Source: Amanita rubescens
Lineage: Eukaryota; Basidiomycota; Agaricomycetes; Agaricales; Amanitaceae
Direction of reading: 5' to 3'
Assembly (NCBI GenBank): GCA_015039365.1
Contig: WION01000031.1
Span: 186,001-250,000, forward strand
DNA: 64,000 bases
Every line of letters starts with the position of its first letter. Position 1 is the first letter of the stretch. The notes beneath the pieces were generated by a model, which was given only the letters and a program-made list of their open reading frames with translations, ran no database searches and was not told the origin of the DNA. A program made the translations under genes and the position numbers. Of this stretch, positions 39,979 through 64,000 are shown piece after piece.

Positions 39979-41703
39979 ATGAAATTCAGCCTATTCACTG
40001 GCGACAAACGCGACGTCCTGCCAGCCGCGTCCCCGCCCGAGCTAAGCACGCTCATCAAATTCATGGACCTTCCAGTAGAGATACATCACCGCATCGTTGC
40101 CGAAGTAAGCGTGCTAGTGTACTATAACCACGGCGCTTGACTAGTGGCTAACCAATTTCTCTCTCTCTCGTAGTTTCTGAAGGATTTGGACACGACTTTC
40201 GATGAAATTAAAGCACTCCGCCTTGTCTGCAGTCGTTTCAACGCGATTGTTAAAGCCAGAGTGTATTCCTCCCGTATCAAATTATTCCGGGGACCCGATT
40301 ATAAACATTTATCGTCCAATTTACGCCAGCTCCTGACTCTTTTGTCTTCGAAACCAAATGAGCAATTGCATACGACAAAAACTCTTTTCATTGGACACTG
40401 GGGCTGGCTTCATGAAAAAAACGGTTACATTCATTTTCATGAAGCCTCCACGATTGTCTGCGCAGTGCTTATGAATGTCGGAATTGCCGTAATTTACTAT
40501 CTCGTTGTGCCCATCGTAAATCCACGAGTTCTGCCCAAAAGGGTGGTCAAGACTACGCTGCGTGCGTTTGCAAAACTCAAGCTTTATCTTCCCCTTTCGC
40601 AGTTCAACTTGCCGAACGTCTCTTGCATTGTGTACGTTTGTGTATTTTATTCCTTGGAAAAACAGCTTAACGTATCTTAGATGGCAACCAGGGACCGACG
40701 ACCCGAAGTCGATAATATCCCGCATAGTTAAATTGCTCCAACAGCTGCCTCGGCTCGACGGACTCTCCCTCATCATCAATGAATCTTCGAAGAGGTTTGA
40801 CCATCTCGTCAATTGCGTGTCCAAGTTGCACAATTTGCGCAAGCTCAGCTTCAAATTTTATCATGATGATTCCTTCGGTTCATGGAGTCACACCTTCTGC
40901 GACCCCCGAATCAATGCAGTTTCAAAGATTATCGCGGCAAACCCCAACCTAACGCACCTTGAAGTGATGCACTCTCCAATGGTAGATGATCTCGAAATCG
41001 ATCTAGCGCAAATGCTTAGACACGTACCTGCCGATCGCCCTTTAAAGTTGGAACACTTTCACCTCTCTCATTCCTTCCGTAATTCGGAAGCTCTCGCACC
41101 CCATATCCGCTCCTTGACTTCCACTGATCTTCCCGACTCCGAAATCTTGGAGGAGCTGCTCGAACAATGCGTATTTCCTCCCACCTTGACATTAAAGATT
41201 ATAGGCCAGTATGCGATCGAATACCTGGACCGTCATCCTCAAATTATTAGCCTAACGACGTTCTATGCCTGCCGCGAATTCTTTACCTTTATGGGAATCC
41301 TGTCCCGGCACTCCGACACCTTGACGCACCTCGGCCTTTCCCATTGGGTTTTTTTCGATTGTATCGATCAAACAGAGAACAAGTTGGCATTGCTCCGATG
41401 CAGGAACCTCAAGCGGCTAGATCTTTACTATCGGTCTATCATGGACACGGTGACTGCTTTGGAGCTAGAGATGGTATGTTTGGCTCCGAATGCACCTGTC
41501 ACATACGCTGAACACCATGTCGGCAGGAAACAGTGTTGTCAGTAATCTCTCGCCTTCCGGACTCTCTTACGCTCGTGGTCAATGAAGCCTGGGCTTGTGA
41601 AGTGTGTAGTACGTTTTGTGGCAGATCTCAGGATCCCCTCCTGCGTGACCTAGCGAGGCGCATTGTGTGCGAACCGGTGCCATTGAACAACATTCTACTG
41701 TAG
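39979..41703 (+). CDS. F-box protein, paralogue 1
   Basis: This is a likely substrate receptor of an SCF ubiquitin ligase. The N-terminal exon ends in the F-box-like start FMDLPVEIHHRIVAE. After an intron (about 40105-40173) it continues FLKDLDTTFDEIKALRLVCS and RFNAIVKARVYSSRIK. Later parts are leucine-rich: KLHNLRKLSFKFY, NPNLTHLEVMHS, PLKLEHFHLSHSFRNSEALA and TLTHLGLSHW, typical of basidiomycete F-box proteins. Introns lie at about 40631-40679 and 41474-41526; the last joins to ETVLSVISRLPDSLTLVVNE and a stop TAG at 41701-41703. The start is the ATG at 39979-39981. The frame is intact. It is a paralogue of the gene at 50230. Confidence 0.75.
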
Positions 41704-42664
41704 ATTTTGTGAAAATGTCTTTCATATGCTACTGTGACAGTGCTACATGTAGGAACAACCTACTATGAATATACTGAAGGTAGGCCCTGCATACTAGTAG
41801 CTGGTGGTAGCTGTACTTTACACTGACAATGTTGAACAACTTGGTATGTACATAATTATCCACCAATTCCTGGGATAAACATGAACTGAGCCTCAGTTCC
41901 TGCATTAAATATTGAAATACCCCTGTAATGCTGGGACACTTGGCCCACAGAGTTCAAGGTTATTGACCACATATACATAAATCTAGCAGTGAATCTGATG
42001 CCTGAACTTGTTTAACAGAGTAGTATTTCAATACATACTGGCATGTATGTATGTCAATCAACACAATAAACATGCTGACTGCTGCTTTGACTATTATAAT
42101 TGTGACTTGGAGAAGGTAGGTTTGTCAGTGAAGTGACTTATGTATGTATCAGTGGCACAGTTTCAAGAATCACACAGTCAAAAATAAGTTGTAAGCTTGC
42201 TATTAGACTTCACATTTCCACATATGTATATGTATCATACACTGTCATATTGAAAAATCCTAATTAGGGCATACTATTCAACACTTCAGTTTTCTCCATA
42301 TGCCTTTGAGTCCCTTGATAAACCTATTCTTAGGTGAGATTGCAATGTGCTGAAGTTGTTGTTCACCAGAACTTGAAGGCTACATTAAAGAACAGGTTAG
42401 AAGTAATGTGGGAGTTGGTGTACAATGATAGGATACCATGGGCACCACATTTTGACTCTCCTCCTGCACCAGATGTGGAACCTCTTTGAAATGGTCATGG
42501 GTATTGGAGACCTATACACAATCCAGATCTAGTATGAAAATTAAGTCAATGTACATGTCACCCACTATGGCTTCTTGCTCTTCAGCTTGTTGGATCTCTA
42601 GTTGGTCAAGGGGCTTCAACTAAACAAAAAGAAATGAATAGATATAAAATAAAGTTCAACTTGC

Positions 42665-45600
42665 TTAATTTACCACATTTTCAGGTTTGTCATGATATTG
42701 CTGAGATGGTTGAAGGACTCCATTGGAAGAGGGTTGGTGGGTGATACTAGCAGTGAAAGTTGCATCCAGATGGCCTGATTCAGGCTTTCCATTTTTGGCA
42801 TTTATCACATCCAACTCTGGTTTCTCTGCCTCATTTAACTTTCCTTCATTCCTAGATGTTGCCTGCAAGCTAGATATGTTGGTGAGAGTGTCTGGGTGGC
42901 TGGACTCAAGCATTGCTTTACTTGCATACATAATATCCATGTCAAGCTTTTCTGCCTCATCTAACCTTCCCTGATTCCTGTATGTTGATGCCAAATTGAC
43001 CATGCTGGCAAGAGTGTCTGGGTGGTCTGATCCAAGCTTTATTTTTCTTGCATTCAACACATCCACACCAAGCATCTCTGCCTCATCCCACCTTCCCTGA
43101 TACCTGTATGTCAATGCCAGATTGGCCATGCCAGTGAGAGTGTCTGGGTGGTCTGATCCAAGCTTTATTTTTCTTGCATTCAACACACCTATCTCAAGCT
43201 TCTCTGCCTCATCCCACATTCCCTGACTCCTGTATGTTGATGCCAAATTGGCCATGCCAGTGAGAGTGTCTGGGTGGTCTGATCCAAGCTTTATTGTTCT
43301 TGCATTCAACACATCTATCTCAAGCTTCTCTGTCTCATCCCACCTTCCCTGATTCCTGTATGTTGATGCTAAATTGGCCATGCTGATGAGTGTGTCAGGG
43401 TGGTCTGATCCAAGCTTTGTTTTCCTTGCATTCATCACATCCTTGTCAAGCTTCTCTGCCTCATCCAACCTTCCCTTATTCCTGTATGTTGTTGCCAGAT
43501 TGGCCATGCTGGTAAGGGTTTCTGGGTGGTCTGATCCAAGCTTTGTTTTCCTTGCATTCATCACATCCATGTCAAGTTTCTCTGCCTCATCCAACCTTCC
43601 TTGCTTCCAGTATGTTGCTGCCAAATTAGCCATGCTGGTGAGAGTGTCAGGGTGGTCTGATCCAAGCTTTGTTTTTCTTCCATTCAACACATCCATCTCA
43701 AGCTTCTCTGCCTCATCCCACCTTCCTTGATCCCAGTATGTTGATGCCAAATTGGCCATGCTGGTAAGAGTGTCTGGGTGGTCTGGTCCAAGCTTTGTTT
43801 TTCTTGCATTCATCACATCCATGTCAAACTTCTCTGCCTCATCCCACCTTCCCTGATTCCTATATGTTGATGCCAAATTGGCCATGCTGGTGAGAGTGTC
43901 TGGATGATCTGATCCAAGCTTTGTTTTGAATGCATTCATCACATCCATCTTAATCTTCTCTGCTTCACCCCACCTTCCCTGAGTCAAGTATGTTGATGCT
44001 AAATTGGACATGGTGGCAAGAGTATTTGGGTGGTCTGGTCCAAATTTTGTTTTGGATGTATTCAGCACATCCATCTGAAGCTTCTCTGCCTCATCCCACC
44101 TTCCCTGGTCCTTGTATGTTGATGCCAAATTGGCCATGCAGATGAGTGTGTCAGGGTGGTCTGATCCAAGCTTTGTCCTGAATGCATTCAGTGCATCCAT
44201 CTCAAGCTTCTCTGCCTCATCCCACCTTCCCTGATTCCTGTATGTTGATGCTAAATCAGCCATGCTGGTGAGAGTGTCTGGGTGGTCTGATCCAAGCTTT
44301 GCTCTGAATGCATTCAACACATCCATGTTAAGCGTTTCTGCCTCATCCCACCTTCCCTGATTTCTGTATGTTGATGCCAAATTGGCCATGCTGGTGAGAG
44401 TATCTGGGTGATCTGATCCAAGTTTTGTTTTGAATGCATTCATCACATCCATCTCAAGCATCTCTGCCTCATCCCACTTTCCCTGATTTGAGTATGTTGA
44501 TGCCAAATTGGCCATACTTGTGAGAGTGTCCAGGTGGTCTGACCCAAGCTTTGATTTTCTTCCATTCGTCACATCCATCTCAAGCTTCTCTGCCTCATCC
44601 CATCTTCCCTGATTTGAGTATGTTGATGCCAAATTGGCCATGCTGGTGAGTGTATCTGGGTGGTCTGATCCAAGTTTTGTTTTGGATGCATTCAGCACAT
44701 CCATCTGAAGCTCCTCTGCCTCATCCCACCTTCCCTGCTCCCAGTATGTTGCTGCCAAATTGGCCATGCTGGTGAGAGTGTCAGGATGATCTGATCCAAG
44801 CTTTGTCTTGAATGCATTCATTACATCCATCTGAAGTTTCTCTGCCTCATCCCACCTTCCCTGATTCCAGTATGTTGCTGCCAAATTGGCCACACTGGTG
44901 AGAGTCTCTCGGTCATCTGATCCAAGCTTTCTTTTTCTTGCATTCAAAACATCCATCTGAAGCTTCTCTGCCTCATCCCACCTTCCCTGATTCCTGTATA
45001 TTGATGCCAAATTGGCCATGCTGGCAAGAGTGTCTGGGTCATCTGATCCAAGCTTTATTTTTAATGCATTCATCACATCCATGTTAAGCTTCTCTGCCTC
45101 ATCTAACCTTCCCTGATCCTGGTATGTTGCTGCCAAATTGTTCATAGCAATGAGTGTGTCTGGGTGATCTGATCCAAATTTTATTCTCTTCTGATCAACT
45201 GCCTCTTGTAACAATTGTTCTTCCTCATCCCAGCTCCCAGTATGATCAAATACAAATGCAAATCTTGCATACTCATCATCATAGTACTTGTTATCCAACT
45301 TTAATTCCAGTCCATGTGAAAAGTTTGACCTAATGTGTGGTGCAAGGGATCGATAGAATTCATAATTATCAATATTCCAGTCAAGAGATATTGAACAGGA
45401 CAGCAGTGCTCTTGCTTTGTAATAATGATCAGCTACTTCTATTTTTTGTATGCAGTTCCTGCTCCAGGCATTTACTAGTAGGTGCATGGAATACATGTGA
45501 TTATGACTCCTGACAAAAGAGAATGAGAGTAAAACCTGGATTCCATGTAGAAACTGTAATTTGTCCCACTCCCCATGTTTTCCCATGAACACAGTTTCAT

Positions 45601-46630
45601 CATTCAGCAAACTCAATGATGAAGAAGAATACTCATCAATATTTCTTCTCATGTAGTTCTCAGCAGCATTTTTGAATAATTCTTGTGGTATATTGGCATG
45701 GTTTATGAAAGCAAATATCCTCAAGAGCTTGATGGCACTTTGTGCTTCAACAGATTCCTGAAAACTAGCCATCTCCTCCATTTTTTTCAAGGAGATGTCC
45801 CATGTCCCATATGTAGATGTCCCATAATCTGCAGCACCCTCAAATCCTGGAGTATCCCTCATTAACTTGTCCTTGTATCTTGTGTACAATTCCAAATAAT
45901 CATTAATGCTGCAACCACAGGAATGCATATATGCTCCTGCTTGGTCAATGGCAAGAGGGATTCCATCCAATTGTGACACAAGCTGCTGGGCTAGATCATA
46001 GATATCATCATCTGCTGTGTCATCAAGCATGGCTGACTTCAAAAGCAAGGAAATAGCATCTTCATCTTCCATCCCATCAATCTCCATTGAGTTCAATGCA
46101 GACCTCTTCAACCCAATATTCCTACTTGTTATCATAATGTTTCCTCCATTTCCTGGTGGGAGGAAGTTCCCAACTACTGAGTAATGTTCATCTGCTCCAT
46201 CATACACCATCAAAAAGTTGGGCCTTTGAGAAATCCAATCAAGAGCAGACCTGGCTGAGGGTCTACCATCTGGTGAAGTACTGTAGGTTGAAGATATTTG
46301 TGTGAGTACAATTTCAACAGTTTTCTCTGAAGAAGCATCAATCCAGAATATGTCAGAGAACCTTGAATACATCAGTTATTTTGGATTACTATGCTAATGT
46401 ATACATAAAATACTCACAAATCAGTATTTTCTTCAATGAATTTAAGGCAAATCTGAGTCTTGCCAATGCCACCTAAACCATGCAATAAGAAAATCTTCCT
46501 TTGTCCTTGTTGGGAGGTAAAATAGTCCTTCAGCTTTTGCAAGTACTTATCTTGGCCTGTAAAGAAAGCACTAGAATGTTTAATAGGAGGTAGAGGAGGT
46601 AGATCAATGTTAGAAGGGTCTGGAAGATAG
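42665..46630 (-). CDS. NLR (STAND) protein: NB-ARC plus 19 TPR repeats
   Basis: This is a fungal NOD-like receptor type protein. The first recognisable exon (about 46419-46630) has the P-loop LHGLGGIGKTQIC. The main exon (42665 to about 46366, 1230 codons without a break) has FWIDASS, Walker B FLMVYDGADE, MITSRN and DGIPLAIDQAGAYM, a winged-helix-like stretch, then 19 TPR units of 42 residues (consensus KLGSDHPDTLTSMANLASTY then QGRWDEAEKL), many nearly identical. A donor at the end of the TPR exon (GTAAAT) could lead to extra exons at about 42512-42619 (LKPLDQLEIQQAEEQ) and 42278-42380, so the stop at 42665 may not be the real end. The 5' exon is not resolved; SADPPQVLNTSILPGYQ at about 46680-46780 may belong to it. 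Expected role: nonself recognition, by analogy. Confidence 0.8.
42700..45190 (-). repeat. Array of 126-bp TPR-coding units
   Basis: Nineteen units of 42 codons are repeated in tandem without interruption. Most of the central units differ at only a few positions, at both DNA and protein level; the first and last units are more diverged. Variable positions cluster at the same places in each unit (for example after ASTY and at the NARK/NAFK end). Confidence 0.85.
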
Positions 46631-46639
46631 TAGTTGATC

Positions 46640-46966
46640 TATGAGTCTTCATTATTGACAAGATCCAGGTGAAAAAATGCTAAAATGTAATGCCTCTATG
46701 AATTGGCCATCCATAACAACAACATTCTGGTATCCAGGAAGGATACTGGTATTCAATACCTGAGGTGGATCTGCTGACATGGCAATCAAACTCAATGAAA
46801 GAATCATATGTTGAGAATTATGCTTGGAATAGACCAAAATGAGGTTACCTTCGGATGCTGTGATGAATGATGTGGCTATATGGCAGTCGAGAAGAAAGGA
46901 AGTGATGTAACATGTCACATGGAACTTCGTGGAAAAGGTCTTCGGTTCAGCGGAATGTAGATACAA
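46640..46966 (-). other. Possible 5' exon of the NB-ARC-TPR gene
   Basis: A minus-strand frame reads ...SADPPQVLNTSILPGYQNVV and ends GSCQ before a stop. Its position 5' of the P-loop exon and its location inside the CpG-poor DNA at the left part fit a first exon, but no clear donor joins it to the next exon. Confidence 0.3.
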
Positions 46967-50229: not shown

Positions 50230-51935
50230 ATGAAATTCAGATTCCCTGGCAAAAAACGCAATGCCATCGCTGTGGGCGCGGCTATACCTGAGCAACGCAT
50301 GCTCACCTTCATGGACCTTCCAGTCGAGATACATCAATCCATCGTTACCGAGGTATGCGTGCTAGTGTTCTGTAGCCTCGGCACCCTATTGATCGTTTAT
50401 ATTCTCGTAGTTCATAAAGGATTTACGCACGACTTTTGATGAAATTAAAGCTCTCCGCCTTGTCTGCAGACGGTTCGACGCAATTGTTAAGCCCAGGGTG
50501 TATTCTTCCCGTATCAAACCATTCGGTAGTAGAGAATCGTGGCCCAACGTGCGTCAACTCCTGACTCTCTTGTCTTCAAAACCGAACGAACAATTGAATG
50601 TGACGACGACGCTTTTCATTCGGTCTTGGTTCTGGCTTAGTAATGGAGGGAGTGTTATCGTACCCTTTCGTGAAGTACACTTCATTGACTACATATTTCT
50701 GAATGCCGCGAGCCTCATTTATATCTATATCGTCATCCCCATCATGTTCCCGGGGGCACTGTCCAGAAGGGCGCTTAGTGAAGCCCTGTGTACTTTTGCG
50801 AAACTCAGGCTTTATGTGCCTTACAAGCTCAAGTTCAACTTGCCCAATCTTTCCTGTATTGTGTACGTTGTGCGTTATATTTCATCAGAAAATTGGCTGA
50901 TTCTTTCTTAGATGGAACGTGGATCTCAATGATCCGAAGTGGATAATCTCTCGCACAGCTAAAATACTCCGACAATTGCCTCGGCTCAGCGAACTTTTCC
51001 TTGGTATGGACGAAGCCTTGGAGGAGTTCAACCACCTCGTCAAGTGCTTCTCCAAGCTGCACAATTTGCGCAAGCTTGGGTTCAGATTTCGTCACGATTT
51101 TCCCCAACCAAACTGGTTATACACGCCTTCGGACCGCAACTTTAACCTTCCCCGAATTAATAAAGTGGGGAAGATCATTGCGGCAAATTCCAACTTAACG
51201 CATCTAGAAGTGACACATTCTCGGGCGGACCTTGGCAAAAACATTGATCTTGCGCAAATGCTTGCATATGTACCTGCCGATCACCCCTTAAAGCTGGAGC
51301 ACGTTTGCCTTTCTCATTCTTTTCGCAACTTGGCAGCTCTTGCACCTCATATCCGCTCTTTGACATCCATCGATCTCGCTGACCCTCGTGTTTTGAACGA
51401 GCTGCTGAGACAAGGCGTATTTCCCCCGACCATAACGTTAAAGGAAATAGACCAGCATACAATTGAATATCTCGACCATCATCCTCAAATTATCAGCCTA
51501 GTAACGATATTCTGTTCCCGCCATGACCCATTCGGTTCTACCATACTAAGAATCCTGTCTCGGCACTCCAAAACCTTAACACACCTTGGCGTTTCCTTTC
51601 ACATTTTATGCGATCAAACGGAAAACGAGCTGGCGTTTCTTCAATGCACAAATCTTAAGCAGCTGGCTCTTTATCAATCTGAATGTAGTAGTATCGTCAA
51701 GCAGGCGGCGGTAGGTTTGGACCGTAGTGTAGATTCTTACACATGCTAAAGATGATTTCAACAGGAAACGTTATTGTCGGTCATTGCGCAACTTCCGGAT
51801 TCACTTACGCTCGTGGTCGATGAAACTTGGGTTTGCAAATCGTGGACTAGGTTCTGTAGCGGGTCTCAGAATCCGTTTTTACGCAACTTAGCAAGCCGTA
51901 TTGTATACGAGCCCAGGTCACTTGTGTATACTTAA
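50230..51935 (+). CDS. F-box protein, paralogue 2
   Basis: This is a paralogue of the gene at 39979 with the same four-exon layout. It starts MKFRFPGKKRNAIAVGAAIP (ATG 50230-50232) and the F-box-like FMDLPVEIHQSIVTE. Introns lie at about 50353-50410, 50863-50911 and 51714-51765. Leucine-rich parts include CFSKLHNLRKLGFRFRHD, NSNLTHLEVTHS, PLKLEHVCLSHSFRN and TLTHLGVSFHILCDQTENEL. After the last intron the C-terminus reads ETLLSVIAQLPDSLTLVVDE and ends EPRSLVYT before TAA at 51933-51935. The frame is intact after splicing. The pair flanks the NB-ARC-TPR locus. Confidence 0.75.
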
Positions 51936-52169
51936 AGTTGGGGTAAACACTGAGTCGAGGATGGTACGCTTGTTTGTTGTCTTCTCGCTACGTGACGCGG
52001 GATCCACTCACGCGATAGAGCGCTGTATGAATGTATGAAGTAAATGGTCCATTCTCATTCTTCCATCATAGTATAGACTCGTGGTTTCAGCACGCGAAAA
52101 AGTTATAAATTGATTGCAATTGCTTTATCTTTATGAATAATATACCCATGGCCACGCTGTCGGTCCTCG
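51936..52169. other. Intergenic, nothing recognised
   Basis: This short gap lies between the F-box gene and the next deubiquitinase fragment. Confidence 0.35.
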
Positions 52170-52530
52170 CTAATACGAGATTTCTGTGTATAAGGAACTC
52201 TCAACGTCGTCCTAAACTTACCTGGAAACATTTTCTGGTATAGGTCTCTCAACGCTTGAAATCTGTCGCTGGTTATAAGCATGCGAATTAACTTGGATGA
52301 ATGAAGACTCACCGTGTACATATCAGCCGTCCAATTCCGCTTTCCGATTTCTTGCAAGCCTGGTCTCCGGCGCGAGCGCTTCCTTCTGCTCGGCAGCCCT
52401 TGAGCACCATGGTGCGAACTACAACTGTTGACGCCTTCTCGACAACGCCAGCTCCTCTTCCAGCGTCTGCAAGAGACCTTCTACGTCTTCTTGATTGCCT
52501 ACAGAACCGGGGTCAAGAAGTCATTCTCAA
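52170..52530 (-). pseudogene. UBP3/USP10 deubiquitinase fragment B
   Basis: This is the same part of the gene as fragment A at 38715: LQEIGKRNWTADMYTV and PGKFRTTLRVPY on the minus strand, with the QEDAEEFL-equivalent at about 52470-52530. The frame is broken and the rest of the gene is missing. It resembles fragment A more than the large wreck does, so A and B probably derive from one copy. Confidence 0.65.
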
Positions 52531-52600
52531 CGTCAGTGATTTCTCGCCTTCCGGACTCTCTTACACTTGTGGTCAATGAGCCCTGGGTTTGTGTGATTGA
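52531..52600 (+). pseudogene. F-box 3' exon scrap fused to the deubiquitinase fragment
   Basis: CAGTGATTTCTCGCCTTCCGGACTCTCTTAC followed by the TGGTCAATGA equivalent matches the last exon of F-box paralogue 1 (about 41537-41590). It directly abuts fragment B, so two unrelated gene pieces have been joined. Confidence 0.7.
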
Positions 52601-52649: not shown

Positions 52650-53480
52650 TTTGGGTGAAATTTTGTCGCAAATGCAGACTCTGTCGTGCGGAGATTTCCG
52701 TATCGTGGAAATGTGACCTGCAATTGTGACACACGAGGCATCCGTCTTGATTTTGCACTACCACAGCCACCGACCCTCGATAATATGAATCATCCTATCA
52801 GGTTCAAGGATAGTACATTCAATGAAGTTCATGGTAGCTATGTGTGTCATCCAATCTGATGCCAATCACATCACACTGACAACTGATATAACTTAGACAC
52901 AGAATACCATTCAAGTCACAAATGGTATGTGATAGTTTTTGTCACTGAAACTCATGTCTCAAATGTTACATTTAGTAAATAAGGAAGAGCTTCTTGGTTT
53001 GTTATTTAGCGGTCAACCTAAGATGCCTGACATATCCCTACTGCAGAAAAGTTCAAAAAGTGGTTGGCTGTACCTGACCCATCAATCAACCATAACATTG
53101 CTAGAGAGAAGCACCATGAAGGCACTTGTCAGTGGCTCCTAGATGACAAGAGATATATTTCCTGGAAAGAACAATCTAACTCTTTCATGTGGATCAATGG
53201 CATATGTGAGCAACATCTTTAAATGGTTTATTCTTAGTGACTCAATGATTGGTAGCTGGTTGTGGGAAGACTCTCATTTGGTGAATATTCTTTTTGGTGC
53301 TTTGTGCTGCTCAGCTAAGAGAAGAACAGCTCCACCATCATTGAGGACATCAAAGACATTGCTCAAGATCATCCTGGGACTGGTTTGGCCTATTTCTATT
53401 TTGACATCAATGACAAAATGAAGCAGACATCCAGAAGCCTTCTTTCTTCTCTAGTCCTGAGTTTGACAGCAAAGTCCAAG
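52650..53480 (+). repeat. Segmental duplication, copy 1 (NACHT gene 5' part)
   Basis: This matches 63165 to the right edge of the window with small differences, covering the upstream flank, the first NACHT exons and their introns. Confidence 0.85.
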
Positions 53481-56400
53481 GATTTTTTGCTGTTGGAAAA
53501 GCTTTATGACAAGCATGACCAGCTTCATAAGCCAACAAAGTCTGAACTTCTTCATCTGCTTATGAAGCTTTTGCAACTCTTCCAGCAAGCTTACATTGTT
53601 ATTGATGCTCTGGATGAATGTGATGATTATTACCAGTTATTTGTCCAAGTGGTCAAAATCATTTATGAATGGCAATTGCCACATTTTCACCTTCTGGTGA
53701 GCAGCAGAAGAGAGCAGCACATCATCACCTCTATGGGAGAATGTGGCCCAGCTGAAATATGTCTGTCTGCAGAATTGGTTGAGAGAGATGTGATATCCTA
53801 TATTTGTTCAGTTGTTAAAGAAGACCATAGGCTGAAGAGGTGGAGTGACATTGTACAACAAGATATAAAGAATGCACTTATTAGTAGTGCAAATGGAATG
53901 TATGTTTGATCACATTTTTAACTATCCAGAGGCACTTAAAGTGGCTGAGCAGGTTCCGCTGGGTTGCATGCCAAGTTGAAGAGCTGAAGTACTGCCAAAG
54001 TGAAGCTGTGCTTATACAAACATTGAAGTCTCTTCCAAAAGACCTTGAAACCACCTATGATCAAATACTTCAAAGGATTCATGAAAAGGAGATGTCATCT
54101 GCAAAAGTCATTCTACTGTGGTTAGCATTGGGCATGAGACCTTTCACACAAGAGCAACTAGCCATTGTGGTGACATTTGATCCCCTTAATAACACATTTG
54201 ATTCCAGGTTGGGATTGCCATGTCCTGATGATGTTTTACAAGTGTGTTCCAGCCTCATAATGAAGACCAGTTACAACACAGTCAAACTGGCTCATGCAAC
54301 TGTGAGGGAGTACTTGATTAACAAGCCAGAGAAAATTGGATTGTCTGGTTTAGAAGCAGGTCATGCTTCCATTGCTCATTTCTGCTTAAGTTATCTTCTG
54401 TACAGTGGGTGGAAAACAGAGAAAAATGAATTTCCACTTCTGCAGTACTCAGCACAACTTTGGCCAGACCACTACAAGCTTAGCAGCAAGGATGAAACCC
54501 TGCAGAAGACTGTAATAATGTTTTTTCAGTCAGAGAACGAGACTTTTAACAAGTGGATAGAGATTTATCATGGTACTTGGGAAATCACAGGACATTACTC
54601 CCATATCTCACCACTCCACTATGCTGTATTACTTGGACTGGGGGACATTGTGGAACACTTAGTCAAAGGGAATGATTCCATTCCTACATACAGTGGAATC
54701 ATTCAAATTGCTGCAAAGCATGGATATGTTGATATTATCAAAATGCTGTTGGACAAGGGTGTAAATGTGAATGCACAGGGTGAACATTTTGGCAATGCAC
54801 TACAGGCTGCAATACGTGGAAATCATGTTGAAATGGTCAGGCTTCTGGTGAATGAAGGTGCAGATGTCAATGCACAGGTTGGCAAATATGGAAGTGGATT
54901 ATATCAGGCATCACTACAAGGGCATGCTAAAATTGTTAGGCTTTTATTAGAAAAATCAGCAAATGCCAATGCCAAAGGTAGAGAATATGGGAATGCATTG
55001 CAAGCTGCATCATATCAGGGTCATATTGAGATTGTAAAACTTCTCCTGAAGAAAGGAGCAGATGTGAATGCACAGGGTGGAAAACACAGTAACCCATTGC
55101 AAGCTGCATTGGCAATGGGTCATGCAACTATTGCAAAGCTTCTTTTGGACACAGGGGCAAATGCCAATGCACTAGGTGGATTTTATAGAAATTATAATAT
55201 TGCTGGACTCCTTTTGGGAAAAGGAGTAGATGTGAATTCACAGGATGGGGAATATGGCTATACATTGCAAGCTGCATCATACAAGGGTCATGCTGAAATT
55301 GTCAGCCTGCTGTTGGACAAAGGAGCCAATGTGAATGCACCAGGTAGAGAATATGGCAATGCATTGCAAGCTGCATCAAACAAGGGTCATGCAAAAATTG
55401 TCAGTCTTCTGTTAGATAAAGGAGCAAATGTGAATGCACAGGGTGGAGAATATGGCAATGCATTGCAATCTGCATCACAAAATGGTCATGCTAAAACTGT
55501 CAGCCTTCTGCTACATAAAGGAGCAGATGTGAATGCACAGGGTGGATTCTATGGCAATGCATTGCAAGCTGCAGTATACAATGGTCACACTGAAATTGTG
55601 AGGCTTCTGTTGGATAAAGGAGATGTGGATGTACAGGGTGGAAGATATGGCAGTGCATTGCAGGTTGCATCAGACAAGGGTCATGCTGAGATTGTCAAGC
55701 TTCTATTAAATAAAGGAACAAATGTGAATGCACAGGGTGGAGGATATGGCAATGCATTGCAAGCTGCATCATATAAGGGCTATGCTAAAATTGTCATCCT
55801 TCTGTTGGATAAAGGAGCCAATGTGAACACACAAGGTGGAGAATATGGCAATGCATTGCAATCTGCATCATACAATGGTCATGCAAAGATTGTCAGTCTT
55901 CTGCTGGAAGAACAAGCATGTGTGAATGCACAGGGTGGAAGATATGGCAATGCATTGCAAGCTGCATCATACAAGGGTCATGCTAAAATTGTCAGGCTTC
56001 TGTTAGATAAAGGAGCCAATGTGAATGCAGAGGGTGGAGAATATGGCAATGCCTTGCAAGCTGCATCACATGAGGGTCATGCTGGAATCATCAGGCTTCT
56101 GTTGGATAAAGGAGCAGATGTGAATGCACAGGGTGGAAAATATGGCAATGCATTGCAAGCCACATCATCTGAGGGTCATGCTGAAATTGTCAGGCTTCTG
56201 TTGGATGAAGGGGCAGATGTGAATGGATTGGATGGAAAATATGGCAATGCATTGCAAGCTGCATCACACAAGGGTCATGCTGAGATTGCCAGGCTTCTGT
56301 TGGATAAAGGAGCCAATGTGAATGCACAAGGTGGACTCTATGGCAATGCATTGCAAGCTGCATTATGCAATGGTAATGCTGAACTCATCAGGCTTCTATT

Positions 56401-56875
56401 AGATAAAGGGGCAGATGTGAATGCACAGGGTGGATTCTATGGCAATATATTGCAAGCTGCATCATGCAATGGTAATGTTGAAATTGCCAGGCTTCTGTTG
56501 GATGAAGGAGCAGATGTGAATGCACAAGGTGGATTCTATGGCAATGCATTGCAAGCTGCATCATGCAATGGCAATGCTGAACTTGTCAGGCTTCTGTTGG
56601 ATAAAGGAGCAGATGTGAATGCACAGGGTGGAGAATATGGCAATGCATTGCAAGGTGCATCACACAGGGGATGTCCTGAAATTGTTGGACTTCTGTTGGA
56701 TAAAAGAGCAAACGTGAATGCACAGGGTGGGCCCTATGGAAATGCATTGCAAGCTGCATTACACATGAGTTATAATGTTGAAGCTGCATCTGGGTCATAT
56801 GTGGATTATGCTGGAATTGTCAGACTTCTGTTGGATAAAGGAGCAAATGAGGATTTGCAGTGTGAGGAGTTCTAA
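53047..56875 (+). CDS. NLR (STAND) protein: NACHT plus about 22 ankyrin repeats
   Basis: The first exon I can place starts after an acceptor (CTACTGCAG) with EKFKKWLAVPDPSINHNIAR. The P-loop GISGCGKT is split by a 50-nt intron (53206-53255); a second intron (53281-53329) follows, giving ICSTIIEDIKDI and GTGLAYFYFDINDK. Walker B is AYIVIDALDECDD, with LLVSSRRE after it. A third intron (53900-53952) joins ANGM to FRWVACQVEELKYCQSEA. Then comes the usual YDQILQRIHEKE/VKLAHATVREYL part and about 22 ankyrin repeats of 33 residues (consensus GNALQAASYKGHAEIVRLLL then DKGANVNAQGG). The stop is TAA at 56873-56875. The 5' exon (start codon) is not resolved. This domain order is that of fungal nonself-recognition receptors. 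Confidence 0.8.
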
Positions 56876-56910
56876 TGCAATGCATTGCAAGCTGGATTAT
56901 CCTTGAATGG
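54700..56910 (+). repeat. Array of 99-bp ankyrin-coding units
   Basis: About 22 tandem units of 33 codons, most highly alike. One unit near 55180 has lost about 10 codons, one near 55620 has lost one codon, and one near 56760 carries an insertion. After the stop codon a further start of a unit (AATGCATTGCAAGCTGGATTA) is still visible. Confidence 0.85.
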
Positions 56911-57189
56911 ATGAGTATGATAAGGTAGGTACTCAAACTCAATCAGTAATGCTAAAGTTTCTCAGACATGATTTCAGTGCATAAAGTTAGGTGTATGACA
57001 ACAGTTGTGAAACCAAGTATTCCTGATAAATGTGGGCTTGATCGAAGCCCTTAGCCAGTTCACTTGAACATTGTGTTCTGGGAAGCTGAAAATCTTCATC
57101 TCTTGTCAATGGTCATGTGTGCAATATGTTTGTAAGTATGTACCTTGCCGGATATGACAATTCTCGAAGTGTAGTAAGGGTAACCAATC
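56876..57189. other. Intergenic, remnant of one more ankyrin unit
   Basis: Directly after the stop at 56875 about 25 bp continue the ankyrin repeat pattern out to a second stop. The rest is without recognisable features; CpG reappears from about 57043. Confidence 0.5.
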
Positions 57190-59171
57190 CCCCATCCAGG
57201 CTCACCCGCCTATAAAATAACAAATACGCAGACCAACTCTCATCCCATTCCCAAGCCCCAAACACAGAGTCCTCATGTCTCACATCCGAAACCAGTTCAT
57301 CATCATCCTAACCCACCCATCCCGTGCCTTCACTCCTCCTACCCCAGCTCCACCCCATGCCGGAGCCGCACCGGACCAGCACCGGCATATCTCGTTGGAA
57401 GAAGTACGTCAAGTGTGTAATGCCCGCCGGACGCCGACAAGCCGTGATGGTACAACAACTTGTACTTTGGCGACCAGCTTTTCTTATTCCAGGTGCCAAC
57501 ACGTCTAAATGTACGCCTAGTCAGTTCCTTCCCTCAGAGAGCGAGAGAATGAGGAAACGCACTGTTCGCAATATCCAACTCGGGCCCAAACCGAACTTGT
57601 TTCCCAACTTTGACGACGCCGCCCACGTTCGTGTCGTAGCAAAAGCGTTTCATATGGAGAACCAATATAGGCGGTAGAGCGTCAATGTGGACTTGCTGTT
57701 GAGCTTCCAGAGTTGTACCCGGGCGACCGGGATGAGTGACTTGAACGGGTTGAGGGAGAGAAATGTAAGATAAAGCGTCCTGGACTGTGGGTGTTTGGTC
57801 GCGCTGCCAAAAGAATCCATCAGCGTTAGCAGAAGCGAAGACGAAAATAACAGAAATGTACCTGGATGTCTAATCTAACCGACCTCCAATCTTCAACAAT
57901 GACCGAATCCTTTTTCGCGTAGGGAACCCTCAACGTCGTCCTAAACTTGCCTTCGATATAGTGCTTAAGTTGTATCTATCCATCCATTAAGCGCACCCCA
58001 ACAAATATCATGAAAGAACGACGACTCACCGCCCGTGTGACGACAGTCTGATTCCGCTTCCCGACTTCTTGCCAACCTAGTTCCTCAGGCGGCGCAGCCT
58101 CTTCTTTTTCTTCAGTAGGCTCAGCGGGTGCTTGAGGCGTATGTCGACGACCGGTCACCTCTTCTCGCAACACCACCAATTCCTCTTCCAGCGTCCCCAA
58201 CATGAACCCTAAGAACTCTTCCGCATCTTCTTGCTGACCGCCCTACAGCATCAGAATCAGCAAACCATTTCAATAACCCTTCGCTCAAACACTTACCCTC
58301 ATATTGTCAAACCTCTTCTTCTCCTTCAACGCATCATACACATACGTCGGGATGAACGATTCGCCTTCCCACATTCCCTCATCCTTACCACCATCCTGGT
58401 TCCCATCTTCCCATTGTCGTTCCTTTCCCATTGTCGTTCCTTTTCCTTCCCTTTTCCTACACCCTACCCATTTAGCCAACGCATGTCCGTTCGCCAAACG
58501 AACGTCATCCACCACAAAATCAATTTTTCATAAACTCGATCATAGCGTCCACCAGAGGCGTCTTATCGCTACTCTTCGTCTTCTCCTTGTCGTCTAAGTT
58601 GGCCCCCTTCAACCTCCCAAGTTCAACAATAATAACTTTTGGACAGGCGGCGTGTAGACCAACATCTGCAACATGGCATTGGCAAAACATAGTCGCCTTT
58701 ATTGACCAATCCGCGAGGTCGTGTTGTGGTAGCAGTTGTTGTTGCTGTTGCAGCTGCAGCTAAACTCCCACCACCGCTCGCAAAAGCGACCTTGTTCTTC
58801 TCGTGTGCGCTGGTACTACCTGATGAAGACGGCTCGCCGAATGCGTACCCGTGACTGAGAGTAGAAGCAGGGATAAATCTCTACGACGGGAGGGCGTTCC
58901 TCCCTGAGACGACGAAGACTCGGAAGATTTAAGAAGGGACGCCCATGATGTCTTGGGGGAAGGCGAGAAGTGGTGGTAGTTGCGGCTGTCGTGGTTCCAG
59001 TCGTTGCAGTAGATGTAGCGGCGGTGGGGGTAACAGTGGGGAGGTAGTGCGAGCCACGGCCGTGGTTGATGCAACCGATTTTTCGTCCAGAAACTCGTCG
59101 TCCCCTTTGAGTGGTATCGTACCATTACCCACCACGGCGGGTGAAGAGACAGACGTAGTAGACATTCCCGG

Positions 59172-59568
59172 TGTAACGAGCCGATTCCGGCTACGTTGGA
59201 ACTGATCTCCGAAACCTTCCGAAGCTCCCTGAAGCACTCCGAGCCTATACTCGACCCCGGAGGATGATCGTTTGTGTTCGGACGCATGCACAGGCCTCGG
59301 ACTCGGTGCAGGAATTGTCACATGGTCACCTCATGCCTCCGTAGTATATATACCATTGTGTACGTAGTTGTACTTAGCGAATTATCACCCCATTACTGCT
59401 CCGAGTTTGATTCCTTCGGTTCCCTTCGTTCCTCGGTGCTTCAGACACCTTCCACTCGTTCACCTTCATCTTCGGCACCCTCTCTGCACCCAAGACTCCC
59501 TTCGGACTGACCTCCGTAGTCCCTTTGGCCGAACGCACTTCCGCATCGGCCTTCTTCTGATTGTTTCA
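59172..59568 (+). repeat. 5' LTR
   Basis: The 397-bp repeat begins TGTAACGAGCC and ends GATTGTTTCA. It contains a TATATATA-like stretch at about 59345-59352 (GTAGTATATATACC), a possible promoter. Confidence 0.85.
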
Positions 59569-59588: not shown

Positions 59589-59954
59589 GCTCTTAGGTCA
59601 GTCCGTCGGTCATTCCTTTCACCCAACTGCTGCACAGAAAGCATCGGACAAGCTCCGGTGTCACTTGGAATCTGCTCCGAGCCACTCCAAGCACTCTGCC
59701 GGCCCTCCCATAGCTCAGAGACCATACCCCGCCGACCTTTCTTCAATTATACCCTCCCCGCTCTTTACACTGCAGTAGCCTTCACCACTCGGCCCCACAG
59801 CACTGACACAGCATCAGCCGAACAACGCCCACACGTTCCACTACTCCCGATCCAGCTCCGATCGATCAATAGCTTTCATCCCTGAAGCCCCTTGCTTAAT
59901 CCACCTCGCTTTCCATCAGAACAGCTCGCTTTGCTTCGGCCTGCCAGTAACATC

Positions 59955-61496
59955 ATGACCAAACCAAACCGCCGCATGCCCATCCGAACGAACAAGGAGG
60001 CACCCTGCTTCCGAGGCACTGCCGCTGGTCTTGAGAGATACCTCGAAGATATCGAGATGATCTGCGAGGATAGACAACGCTCCGGAGATGCTGAACTGAT
60101 CAAATGGGCTGTCTACTATACTGATGAGAAATCTTCCGAGATCTGGAGAGCCGCTCGGGACACCCTATCGGATCCGAAAACCTGGGACGCGTTTAAGAAA
60201 GCGATTTCCGAGATCTACCCCGAGGCACAGCCCGATCGCCGCCACACTATCGCAGCACTACACGCCATTTCCGACCGCTTCTCAGCGCAAAATGTCACAT
60301 CCGAGACAGCCCTTGCTGAGTATCACAGGGAATTTTCTGGAACAGCTCAATACCTCATCGGAAAGCGCCGCATGACACGCCGTGAGGCAAGCATCATGTA
60401 CATGTCCGCATTCCCTCCCGAGCTCCGACCCGATATCACTACTCGGCTCACAATCAAGTACCCGGACGTCCACCCCGATGACGGCTATGATCTAAAGGAC
60501 ATGAATAGTGCCGCACAATTCATTATCAGCTCAAGGTCTGCTATAGCCTTGCTCGCCGCGACCACCCCACAAGCTCCGACGCTTCCGACGCCTCCGATGC
60601 CTATCCCTACTCCCCCTCCGAGCACAGCCTTCGCTCCGAGCACAGCTTCCACCCATCTCCTTAGCGGATGCGTTTTCTGCGGAGATATCAATCATCGGAC
60701 AGCCTGGTGCCATATCAGGGATGAATACGCAAGGCAAGGGAAGATCAAAATAGTCGATGGACGGATTCAATTTTTGGACGGCAACGAACCGAATGCATTC
60801 CAATACCGCCACTTCGGACAATGGTTCAAAGAACGCATTGATGTATGGCTGCTGAGGTACACACAGCCGACCGCTCCGAAGCCATTTGTGTCCTCCAACT
60901 ACTTCCTGGAAGCTCTAGACCACTCCGGAATGCATACCGCCGAGCCTGTCAATACTAAAGCACTGCAAAACGTACATACGACTCTGACGCACATACACAT
61001 TAGCACCACGATCCCTAATCAATCCACGCTCCCTAATACCACCCCCTCCGAACCCTCTGAACCCTCCAGACCCTCCGACGCTCCTACCACTACAACACAT
61101 GATACCACCGAGACCTCCGAGGCTCCTGATGACCCCACCACTGCTACGCCAATTTCTGCCACCCCGGAAACCCTCGGCGACCCCATCGCCGAAGTCTTTA
61201 TCATTTCCGAGCCATCTGGCATCCCAACAGCTGCCATTCCGAGACCTGATTCCGCCGAAATTCCAACTGCCGCCTTGACCACCTGCACGATCGAAGAAAG
61301 CGAGACGAGAAGAACCCACCCACCACTTCCCTTCTACTTTCTATCACCATCCGACCTCTCCGACCTGACCAGGAGGTCAGTATTAAAAGTACCCAGGAGG
61401 TGTAACGAGCCGATTCCGGCTACGTTGGAACTGATCTCCGAAACCTTGCGAAGCTCCCTGAAGCACTCCGAGCCTATACTCGACCCCGGAGGATGA
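59955..61496 (+). CDS. Gag-like protein of the LTR element
   Basis: A 514-codon frame from the ATG at 59955 (MTKPNRRMPIRTNKEAPCFR). The N-terminal half is helical and capsid-like (GLERYLEDIEMICEDRQRSG, YYTDEKSSEIWRAARDTLSD, ALAEYHREFSGTAQYLIGKR). A CCHC zinc knuckle follows (CVFCGDINHRTAWC, spacing C-x2-C-x4-H-x4-C). The C-terminal third is Pro/Thr/Ser-rich and disordered. The last about 32 codons lie inside the 3' LTR, stop TGA at 61494-61496. There is no protease or polymerase frame. The frame upstream of 59955 is open to 59892, but that codon is TTG. Confidence 0.8.
   Translation: MTKPNRRMPIRTNKEAPCFRGTAAGLERYLEDIEMICEDRQRSGDAELIKWAVYYTDEKSSEIWRAARDTLSDPKTWDAFKKAISEIYPEAQPDRRHTIAALHAISDRFSAQNVTSETALAEYHREFSGTAQYLIGKRRMTRREASIMYMSAFPPELRPDITTRLTIKYPDVHPDDGYDLKDMNSAAQFIISSRSAIALLAATTPQAPTLPTPPMPIPTPPPSTAFAPSTASTHLLSGCVFCGDINHRTAWCHIRDEYARQGKIKIVDGRIQFLDGNEPNAFQYRHFGQWFKERIDVWLLRYTQPTAPKPFVSSNYFLEALDHSGMHTAEPVNTKALQNVHTTLTHIHISTTIPNQSTLPNTTPSEPSEPSRPSDAPTTTTHDTTETSEAPDDPTTATPISATPETLGDPIAEVFIISEPSGIPTAAIPRPDSAEIPTAALTTCTIEESETRRTHPPLPFYFLSPSDLSDLTRRSVLKVPRRCNEPIPATLELISETLRSSLKHSEPILDPGG
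61390..61400 (+). promoter_or_regulatory. Putative polypurine tract
   Basis: The bases just before the 3' LTR (ACCCAGGAGG) include a short purine run AGGAGG, the expected site for plus-strand priming. The run is short. Confidence 0.35.
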
Positions 61497-61797
61497 TCGT
61501 TTGTGTTCGGACGCATGCACAGGCCTCGGACTCGGTGCAGGAATTGTCACATGGTCACCTCATGCCTCCGTAGTATATATACCATTGTGTACGTAGTTGT
61601 ACTTAGCGAATTATCACCCCATTACTGCTCCGAGTTTGATTCCTTCGGTTCCCTTCGTTCCTCGGTGCTTCAGACACCTTCCACTCGTTCACCTTCATCT
61701 TCGGCACCCTCTCTGCACCCAAGACTCCCTTCGGACTGACCTCCGTAGTCCCTTTGGCCGAACGCACTTCCGCATCGGCCTTCTTCTGATTGTTTCA
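61401..61797 (+). repeat. 3' LTR
   Basis: This 397-bp copy is identical to the 5' LTR except at one base. Its first 96 bp are also coding sequence of the gag frame. Confidence 0.85.
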
Positions 61798-63164: not shown

Positions 63165-63314
63165 GGTGAAAGTTCGTCGCAAATGCAGATATCGTGGGGA
63201 GATTTCCGCATCGTGGAAATGTGACCTGCCGCAATTCGGACACGTGTCACCCGTCTTCTACTACAACCACCGACCCTTGATAACATGAATGCTATCAGCT
63301 TCAAGGATAGTACG

Positions 63315-64000
63315 TTCAATGAAGTTCATGGCAGCTATGTGTGTCATCCAGTCTACTGTCTGATACCAATACATTTACACTGACAACTTAACTGATATGA
63401 CTTAGACACAGAATATTCAAGTCACAAATAGTATGTCATATTTTTTGTCACTGAAATGTGTGTCTCAAAATGTTATACTTAGTAAATAGGGAACAGCTTC
63501 TTGGTTTGTTATTTAGCAGCCAACCTCAGCTACCACATTAAGAAGCCTGACATATTCCTACTGCAGAAAAGTTCAAAAAGTGGTTGGCTGTACCTGACCC
63601 ATCAATCAACCATAACATTGCTAGAGAGAAGCACCACAAGGGCACTTGTCAGTGGCTCCTAGATGACAAGAGATATATTTCCTGGAAAGAACAATCTAAC
63701 TCTTTCATGTGGATCAATGGCATATGTGAGCAACATCTTTAAAGGGGTTATTTCTAGAGACTCAATGATTGGTAGCTGGTTGTGGAAAGACTCTCATTTG
63801 GTGAATATTGTTTTTGGTGCTTTGTGCTGCTCAGCTAAGAGAAGAACAGCTCCACCATCATTGAGGACATCAAAGACATTGTTCAACATCATCCTGGGAC
63901 TGGTTTGGCCTATTTCTATTTTGACATCAATGACAAAATGAAGTGGACATCTACAAGTCTGCTTTCTTCTCTAGTACTAAGTTTGACAGCAAAGTCCAAG
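63315..64000. other. CpG-depleted island 3 (second NACHT locus, partial)
   Basis: I see no CG dinucleotide from about 63316 to the window edge, while the sequence just left of it is rich in CG. Confidence 0.75.
63567..64000 (+). CDS. Second NACHT-type NLR, 5' part, runs off the right edge
   Basis: The same exons as in the gene at 53047 are present: the KWLAVPDPSINHNIAR block, the P-loop region with the same intron, then ICSTIIEDIKDI (with N for A) and GTGLAYFYFDINDK, up to the edge. Compared with the first copy the intron inside the P-loop has diverged (AAAGGGGTTATTTCTAGAG). No break is visible in the coding part. Whether it also has ankyrin repeats cannot be seen. Confidence 0.7.

What the first reader, a model, noticed from the sequence alone, without database searches (positions are those of the whole stretch)
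41688..46850. NB-ARC-TPR gene sits in an almost CpG-free island with sharp edges
Only about four CG dinucleotides are visible in 5.16 kb, against dozens per kb in both flanks. The reading frame of some 1230 codons is nevertheless uninterrupted. Loss of CG with excess TG/CA is what methyl-cytosine deamination gives, but a gene damaged that way should hold stop codons. Intact coding plus near-zero CpG suggests long evolution under methylation-type mutation with selection, or replacement by donor copies that are themselves CpG-free.
Basis: seen in the sequence. Interest (0 to 1): 0.9.

Follow-up and report, generated by a model that had tools for sequence, protein, structure and literature searches.

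The report
CpG-free bodies of mushroom NLR genes
In the mushroom Amanita rubescens, many immune-receptor-like genes of two kinds have almost no CG letter pairs in their bodies, while neighbouring DNA, other genes and nearly all sampled transposon copies keep theirs; this likely reflects CG methylation that mutates only these gene bodies while selection keeps the proteins intact.

Summary
Window 41676-46851 holds 4 CpG (about 225 expected) between CpG-normal flanks; two more islands lie at 52779-57148 and 63314-64000. All three carry NLR genes.

The genome is Amanita rubescens. CpG loss follows gene class: all 38 loci with NB-ARC or its TPR relatives from two searches (duplicates included) and 20 of 23 ankyrin stretches are CpG-free. 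WD40 receptors with repeats up to 95% identical, 17 of 17 reverse transcriptase stretches, 4 P450s and 3 DNMT loci are normal. Some decayed repeats are CpG-poor too.

In 19 TPR-type loci, CpG falls from 49-80 per kb to about 4 per kb within 150 bp of a conserved promoter motif; it recovers 228-988 bp after the stop (11 loci). Introns and 3' DNA are CpG-free, so codon choice is not the cause. NB-ARC dN/dS is about 0.3. CpGs that arise do not last (16 of 19 singletons against 244 of 499 other variants).

Best explanation: lasting CpG methylation and deamination confined to the bodies of two NLR classes, with purifying selection. Methylation is inferred, not measured. Methylated multicopy genes are known in another mushroom; the promoter-bounded, class-limited pattern is the new part. 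Other species could not be tested.

The parts
41676..46851 (.). CpG-free island 1: body of the NB-ARC-TPR gene with its 3' side
   Evidence: 4 CpG; two-state segmentation
42665..46372 (-). main open frame, 1235 codons, part of NB-ARC plus TPR array; the real exon probably starts near 46361
   Evidence: Pfam NB-ARC 31 bits, TPR_10 18 stretches
46418..46620 (-). predicted upstream exon with the P-loop GLGGIGKT, followed by an intron; exon ends read by eye
   Evidence: sequence; P-loop position in L012
46871..46935 (-). conserved promoter element just outside the island (TTCCACGAAGTTCCATGTGACATGTTACATCACTTCC...), shared with paralogues
41676..42664 (.). non-coding stretch after the stop, 0 CpG in 989 bp
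52779..57148 (.). CpG-free island 2: body of a NACHT-ankyrin gene
   Evidence: 6 CpG
53385..53909 (+). NPHP3_N (NACHT-type) part of the ankyrin gene
   Evidence: PF24883, 66.7 bits, E 3.6e-18
53906..56875 (+). ankyrin-repeat open frame, 989 codons
52710..52735 (+). TGTGAC / GTGACA hexamers on the CpG-normal side of the island 2 edge (lead only)
63314..64000 (.). CpG-free island 3, start of a relative of the island 2 gene, cut by the window end
   Evidence: 0 CpG; 87% identical to island 2 over 872 bp

Best explanation
The CpG-free island is the body of a TPR-type NLR gene, one of many genes of two NLR classes (NB-ARC-TPR and NACHT-ankyrin) in Amanita rubescens whose bodies have lost nearly all CpG, likely because CpG cytosines there are methylated and deaminated while the promoter is spared. 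Shown: the loss is CpG-only; in TPR-type genes it begins just after a conserved promoter element and ends a few hundred bases past the stop; it includes non-coding DNA; it is absent from WD40-type NLRs, from sampled reverse transcriptase copies and from the ordinary genes tested; the NB-ARC domain is under purifying selection; and CpGs that arise do not spread among paralogues. Inferred: 5-methylcytosine is the cause (genes for DNMT1 and DNMT5 are present); the mark lies on transcribed or once-transcribed bodies, so it behaves like gene-body methylation; and it is placed anew on new CpGs, because an almost CpG-free body leaves maintenance nothing to copy. If the sequences are at equilibrium, CpG transitions run about 35-70 times faster there than other transitions. 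The likely outcome is lasting mutation pressure at every new CpG of these receptors, and possibly less recombination between their repeat arrays.
For: 4 CpG against about 225 expected, sharp edges. All 38 loci of two searches free. Ankyrin-linked NPHP3_N 6 of 6 free, 8 other NPHP3_N normal. Promoter-aligned profile drops from 49-80 to about 4 CpG per kb within 150 bp. TG and CA raised, GpC normal, non-coding DNA equally depleted. dN/dS median 0.32 over 174 pairs. CpG singletons 16 of 19 against 244 of 499. Duplicated flanks stay CpG-normal. DNMT1, DNMT5/Rad8 and DNMT2 genes.
Against: No methylation or expression data were at hand. 17 of 17 reverse transcriptase stretches are CpG-normal, odd if this fungus methylates repeats in general, though those copies may be young. 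7 of 12 ankyrin 5' stretches (L182-L188) do not show a sharp edge near the P-loop. CpG-poor decayed repeats exist as well, so the process is not NLR-only. In Pleurotus, gene-body methylation goes with low expression (passages of PMC5974365), which favours the silencing rival.
Confidence: 0.62

Rival explanations
1. Whole-gene silencing: these multicopy NLR genes are treated like transposons, kept methylated and mostly silent, and are expressed just enough for selection to keep the proteins; the CpG-normal promoter is simply where the silenced block ends.
For: 5hmC marks transposons and non-expressed multicopy paralogues in Coprinopsis cinerea (passage of PMC8889193); CpG-poor decayed repeats occur in this genome; in L182-L188 the CpG-poor DNA runs further upstream.
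Against: A conserved, CpG-normal promoter abuts the block; purifying selection; WD40 NLRs, P450s and reverse transcriptases escape although they are multicopy.
Confidence: 0.25
2. Repeat-triggered mutation (RIP- or MIP-like): internal tandem repeats or gene duplication call in methylation and C-to-T change.
For: The affected genes have tandem TPR or ankyrin arrays and many copies.
Against: WD40 arrays with tandem identity up to 0.95 are CpG-normal; duplicated flanks of near-identical copies stay CpG-normal; no CpA, CpT or CpC loss; the PF00145 search gave three matches, none of RID type.
Confidence: 0.08
3. Spread from CpG-free donor copies: the state arose once, long ago, and was handed round by duplication and gene conversion, with no mutation bias today.
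For: In 6 of 7 copy pairs with flanks the body is less diverged than the flank; NPHP3_N free rows lie on one side of one branch.
Against: Minority CpGs are singletons in 16 of 19 cases against 244 of 499 for other variants; paralogues with dS 0.2 or more should have regained CpGs by ordinary mutation (inference).
Confidence: 0.04
4. Selection on codons or on RNA against CpG.
For: None beyond the depletion itself.
Against: The 989 bp after the stop hold no CpG, the 479 bp of the 5' side hold none, and 3' DNA of 8 loci has o/e 0.04; TG and CA are raised as deamination predicts.
Confidence: 0.01

Closest known systems
Methylated multicopy paralogues in Coprinopsis cinerea (passage of PMC8889193, citing earlier work)
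   Same: A mushroom in which a modified-cytosine mark (5hmC) lies on transposons and on multicopy paralogous genes.
   Different: There a mark on non-expressed genes; here a mutational footprint on frames under selection, with the promoter spared, in two NLR classes, and not in WD40 NLRs or sampled reverse transcriptases.
Gene-body methylation of animals and plants (recalled; a review passage, PMC13297926, says it was largely lost in fungi, with exceptions)
   Same: CpG context, transcribed body depleted of CpG, promoter spared.
   Different: Here limited to two NLR classes, and o/e is about 0.02-0.03 where the same review gives a fivefold CpG deficit for the human genome; methylation not measured.
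CpG hypermutation in Rhizoctonia solani AG8 (passages of PMC4014442)
   Same: Agaricomycete; CpG to TpG changes inside protein-coding genes.
   Different: There spread over genes and repeats alike; here confined to particular gene bodies with sharp edges.
Allele-specific gene-body methylation in Puccinia striiformis (passages of PMC12129025)
   Same: Dikaryotic basidiomycete with CpG methylation in gene bodies.
   Different: There measured, and linked to secreted-protein genes and lower expression; no CpG-free gene class is described in the passages seen.
RIP (passages of PMC4352252 and PMC12258605) and its part in Podospora NLR repeat diversity (recalled)
   Same: C-to-T change touching NLR-type repeat genes.
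   Different: RIP favours CpA, needs RID and acts on repeats; here CpG only, no RID-type match, and WD40 repeats are spared.

Membership tests
Fungal NLR (STAND) protein | nucleotide-binding domain with P-loop | tested here: met
   NB-ARC match and GLGGIGKT in the upstream exon; NPHP3_N in island 2
Fungal NLR (STAND) protein | C-terminal TPR, ankyrin or WD40 repeats | tested here: met
   TPR and ankyrin arrays
Fungal NLR (STAND) protein | role in non-self recognition or cell death | not testable with these tools
   no functional data
Gene-body methylation | 5-methylcytosine present in the body | not testable with these tools
   only the CpG footprint was seen
Gene-body methylation | footprint in the body with the promoter spared | tested here: met
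   promoter-aligned profile of 19 TPR-type loci; not clear for 9 of 12 ankyrin 5' stretches
Gene-body methylation | gene expressed | not testable with these tools
   no RNA data
RIP | C-to-T change with CpA preference | tested here: not met
   CpA is raised, not lowered; only CpG is lost
RIP | RID methyltransferase | tested here: inconclusive
   three PF00145 matches, nearest to DNMT1, Rad8/DNMT5 and DNMT2; an exon-wise search can miss genes
MIP-like repeat methylation | effect limited to the duplicated stretch and reaching all of it | tested here: not met
   duplicated flanks are CpG-normal; WD40 repeats are CpG-normal

The most novel reading that the evidence does not exclude
A. rubescens runs a dedicated, promoter-bounded methylation-and-mutation regime on two clades of immune receptors: gene-body CpG methylation, described as largely lost in fungi, is recruited through a shared promoter class to NLR bodies and re-imposed on each new CpG. 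It keeps those bodies under a roughly 50-fold CpG mutation pressure that helps to diversify or stabilise their recognition repeats, while other NLRs and most transposon copies escape.
Probability: 0.22. Interest if true: 0.9.

Novelty: new variant of a known kind. Interest (0 to 1): 0.73.

Why it matters
It gives a sequence-only footprint of where a fungus probably methylates its genes, and the target is a defined set of immune-receptor genes rather than repeats at large. It bears on whether fungi kept gene-body methylation, and on how a large receptor repertoire survives for long under a mutational process that usually ruins genes. One methylome of a common mushroom would test it, with the CpG-normal WD40 receptors of the same genome as ready controls.

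Tried and rejected
Tandem repeats as the trigger: rejected, WD40 arrays with identity up to 0.95 are CpG-normal. Copy number as the trigger: rejected, reverse transcriptases, P450s and WD40 NLRs are normal. Duplication border as the edge: rejected, duplicated flanks stay CpG-normal. Codon selection: rejected by non-coding DNA. TET/JBP enzymes: four weak matches below the cut-off, not followed. Pairwise CpG differences do not by themselves prove loss today, since CpGs that are merely new would also differ; so the singleton test was added.

Limits of the counts. The 38 loci include the window gene itself (L012), several loci of one gene (L001/L014; L023/L037) and haplotype or assembly copies (for example L005/L006, L018-L020, L040/L041). 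Searches score only the best candidates: 126 of 237 for NB-ARC, 38 of 471 for the window protein, 150 of 525 for RVT_1. The 12 extra NB-ARC, 23 ankyrin, 14 NPHP3_N, 17 RVT, 11 WD40, 12 NACHT, 6 KDZ and 4 P450 stretches were picked by hand from those lists. The 40 random stretches came from 50 contigs (22.5 of 75.7 Mb) whose lengths I knew because earlier hits lay on them, so they lean towards such contigs. In one search the motif was sought within 250 bp before and 150 bp after the CpG edge, in variants chosen by eye; 3 of 22 loci had none and were left out. In one search the hexamers were chosen after looking, overlapping hits such as TGTGACA count twice, ankyrin windows were 300 bp against 200 bp for TPR, and L192/L193 are near copies. 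In one search only 174 of 253 pairs (dS 0.02 to 1.2) were kept. Searches dropped duplicate loci before counting, by differing lists. One search aligned 13 pairs; the 8 non-identical ones were totalled, positions in poorly aligned stretches masked.

Literature: searches listed no paper that, by title or abstract start, links NLR genes with CpG loss in a mushroom; only open-licence papers are held. Of eight papers and PMC12470499 (nothing on these genes found) I saw passages, not whole texts.
Full report
Check of the observation. The stretch 41688-46850 holds 4 CpG, o/e 0.018, where base composition predicts about 225. A two-state segmentation sets the edges at 41676 and 46851 and finds two further islands: 52779-57148 with 6 CpG and 63314-64000 with none. 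Window 1-41600 has CpG o/e 1.00.

What lies in the islands. Island 1 carries, on the minus strand, a 1235-codon frame with an NB-ARC match and 18 TPR_10 stretches. The P-loop lies in an upstream exon inside the island, followed by an intron (exon ends by eye). Island 2 carries an NPHP3_N part and a 989-codon ankyrin frame. Island 3 begins a relative of island 2, 87% identical over 872 bp. All three are NLR genes.

The organism. Many proteins found with the window protein are annotated as Amanita rubescens, and lengths of their contigs equal lengths of contigs of this genome (49,716 = C317; 447,660 = C113; 354,308 = C201; 184,121 = C768). The assembly is 75.7 Mb in 786 contigs. Many hits come in identical or near-identical pairs on different contigs, as an assembly with both nuclei would give (inference).

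Survey: CpG-free classes (o/e under 0.2). NB-ARC loci L001-L008: 8 of 8 over the domain. Loci found with the window protein: 30 of 30, cores at most 0.058. Further NB-ARC stretches: 8 of 12; the other 4 (C55, C99, C17, C341) are normal. Ankyrin stretches: 20 of 23; the exceptions are C100 (0.79), C112 (0.80) and C35 (1.12). NPHP3_N stretches linked to ankyrin frames and interrupted after the P-loop: 6 of 6 (linkage from coordinates).

Survey: CpG-normal classes. Eight other NPHP3_N stretches, 0.83-1.24, among them C327, which does have an ankyrin frame. NACHT stretches: 6 at 0.63-1.06 and those of 6 WD40 genes at 0.87-1.15; 11 WD40 stretches at 0.61-1.22. Reverse transcriptase: 17 of 17 at 0.87-1.51, three with a stop. 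P450: 4 of 4 at 0.84-1.04. DNMT loci: 3 of 3 at 0.88-1.04. KDZ transposase stretches chosen for stops: 5 of 6 at 0.71-1.10; the one with most stops is at 0.10. Random 300-bp stretches: 36 of 40 at 0.70 or more, two at 0.00, one at 0.16 and one at 0.40. One of the two at zero lies inside an NB-ARC gene; around the other three no frame exceeds 150 codons, and they look by eye like repeats or a gag-like remnant. So the process also touches decayed repeats; among intact genes tested, only these two NLR classes show it.

What marks the affected genes. In the hit tables, NB-ARC and NPHP3_N matches of affected genes start after the P-loop exon or hold stops where an intron would lie, while those of the normal genes tested run through in one frame (read). 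The NPHP3_N tree puts the seven free rows on one side of one branch with modest support (70/86) and warns of long branches. Repeat type alone does not decide, since C100 and C327 are ankyrin genes of the uninterrupted kind and are CpG-normal. TGTGAC-type hexamers occur two or more times at 15 of 20 TPR edges and 6 of 7 ankyrin edges, in 6% of random 200-bp stretches, and in none of 5 WD40 upstream stretches; the hexamers were chosen after looking, so this is a lead.

The edges. In closer paralogues homology mostly begins 0-165 bp upstream of the CpG edge, in a conserved promoter element; in distant ones only inside. Aligned on CTTCTTGAC and variants in 19 of 22 loci, CpG density is 49-80 per kb upstream, then 18.9, 10.5 and 4.2 per kb in the next three 50-bp bins, then 0-7.4. 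The P-loop lies 222-591 bp inside the edge in 27 of 28 loci with the 5' edge in view; L015 gave no P-loop match. The 3' edge lies 228-988 bp after the stop in 11 loci. Near copies share about 0.7-1 kb of flank (L013/L023, L016/L018, L026/L040, L029/L030) that is CpG-normal, so the edge is not where duplication ends. Among 12 ankyrin 5' stretches, 3 (L190, L192, L193) show a sharp edge 200-323 bp before the P-loop, L189 and L191 are intermediate, and in 7 (L182-L188) the CpG-poor DNA runs to or near the start of the stretch. The promoter-bounded picture is therefore firm for TPR-type genes and mixed for ankyrin genes.

Mechanism. The loss is CpG-specific: GpC and CpT are normal in island 1, TG and CA are raised (pooled). 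Non-coding DNA is depleted too: 0 CpG in 989 bp after the stop, o/e 0.04 over 3.6 kb of 3' DNA of 8 loci. Arg codons are 55 AGR to 2 CGA in the window gene, against 36 AGR to 119 CGN in CpG-normal NACHT stretches; about 7 stops would be expected without selection. NB-ARC dN/dS has median 0.32 and maximum 0.72 over 174 pairs (NG86). Among 20 sequences, minority CpGs are singletons in 16 of 19 cases against 244 of 499 for five other dinucleotides (p 0.004): they do not persist. In eight copy pairs, 33 of 56 island CpGs differ by a transition against 101 of 1609 GpC; in flanks 39 of 351 CpG and 43 of 399 GpC; this alone would also fit CpGs that are merely new. At equilibrium the CpG transition rate would be about 35-70 times that of other transitions. 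The genome has DNMT1, DNMT5/Rad8 and DNMT2 genes, in line with the DNMT1 plus DNMT5 set described for Basidiomycota (passages of PMC7862722). Maintenance alone could not keep an almost CpG-free body under pressure, so new CpGs are probably marked anew (inference).

Exchange between copies. The other haplotype of the window locus (L102, contig C158) is CpG-free over the body as well. Against it the window gene differs by 1-6% in the near flank, the P-loop and most of the NB-ARC part, 10-19% over most of the TPR array, and 2-4% at the 3' end (out-of-register repeats may add to this). In 6 of 7 copy pairs with flanks the body is less diverged than the flank, in L029/L030 by 5 of 3943 against 18 of 1027 sites; the window pair is the exception.

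What is known. A 2026 review says gene-body methylation was largely lost in fungi, with exceptions (passage of PMC13297926). In C. cinerea 5hmC marks transposons and non-expressed multicopy paralogues (passage of PMC8889193). In Pleurotus, gene-body methylation goes with low expression (passage of PMC5974365). R. solani AG8 shows CpG hypermutation across genes (passages of PMC4014442). CpG signatures in basidiomycete transposons are linked with a Masc2-like DNMT1 (passages of PMC4352252). P. striiformis shows gene-body methylation of lower-expressed alleles (passages of PMC12129025). In Sordariales the number of NLRs is only weakly related to RIP (passages of PMC12258605). A near-complete CpG loss confined to two NLR classes, with other NLRs of the same genome spared, did not turn up. 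Other fungi could not be examined at DNA level here.

Noticed in passing
40055-41675 and 50303-52593: Two related CpG-normal genes (pieces 71-89% identical), one next to each of islands 1 and 2; one frame has a weak LRR_14 match under its cut-off, and the start looks F-box-like by eye.
   Followed up: partly
59170-59469 and 61399-61698: An exact direct repeat of at least 300 bp, 2229 bp apart, in CpG-normal DNA, around an open frame 59892-61496 without a Pfam match.
   Followed up: no
L063 and L069 (WD40 arrays on C512 and C190): WD40 repeats 94-95% identical in tandem with GC 0.59-0.60, above the 0.48 of window 1-41600; perhaps homogenisation with GC-biased repair.
   Followed up: no
window 42665-46372 against L102: Between the two haplotypes the TPR array differs by 10-19% over most of its length, while the parts around it differ by 1-6%.
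   Followed up: partly
L029/L030, L026/L040, L013/L023, L016/L018: Gene bodies far less diverged than their own flanks (for example 5 of 3943 against 18 of 1027 sites), which suggests gene conversion of the body.
   Followed up: partly
L199, L200, L201: CpG-poor stretches without long frames found through the random sample, apparently decayed repeats.
   Followed up: no
G000 C774, C25, C190, C109: Four weak Tet_JBP matches, all below the Pfam cut-off.
   Followed up: no
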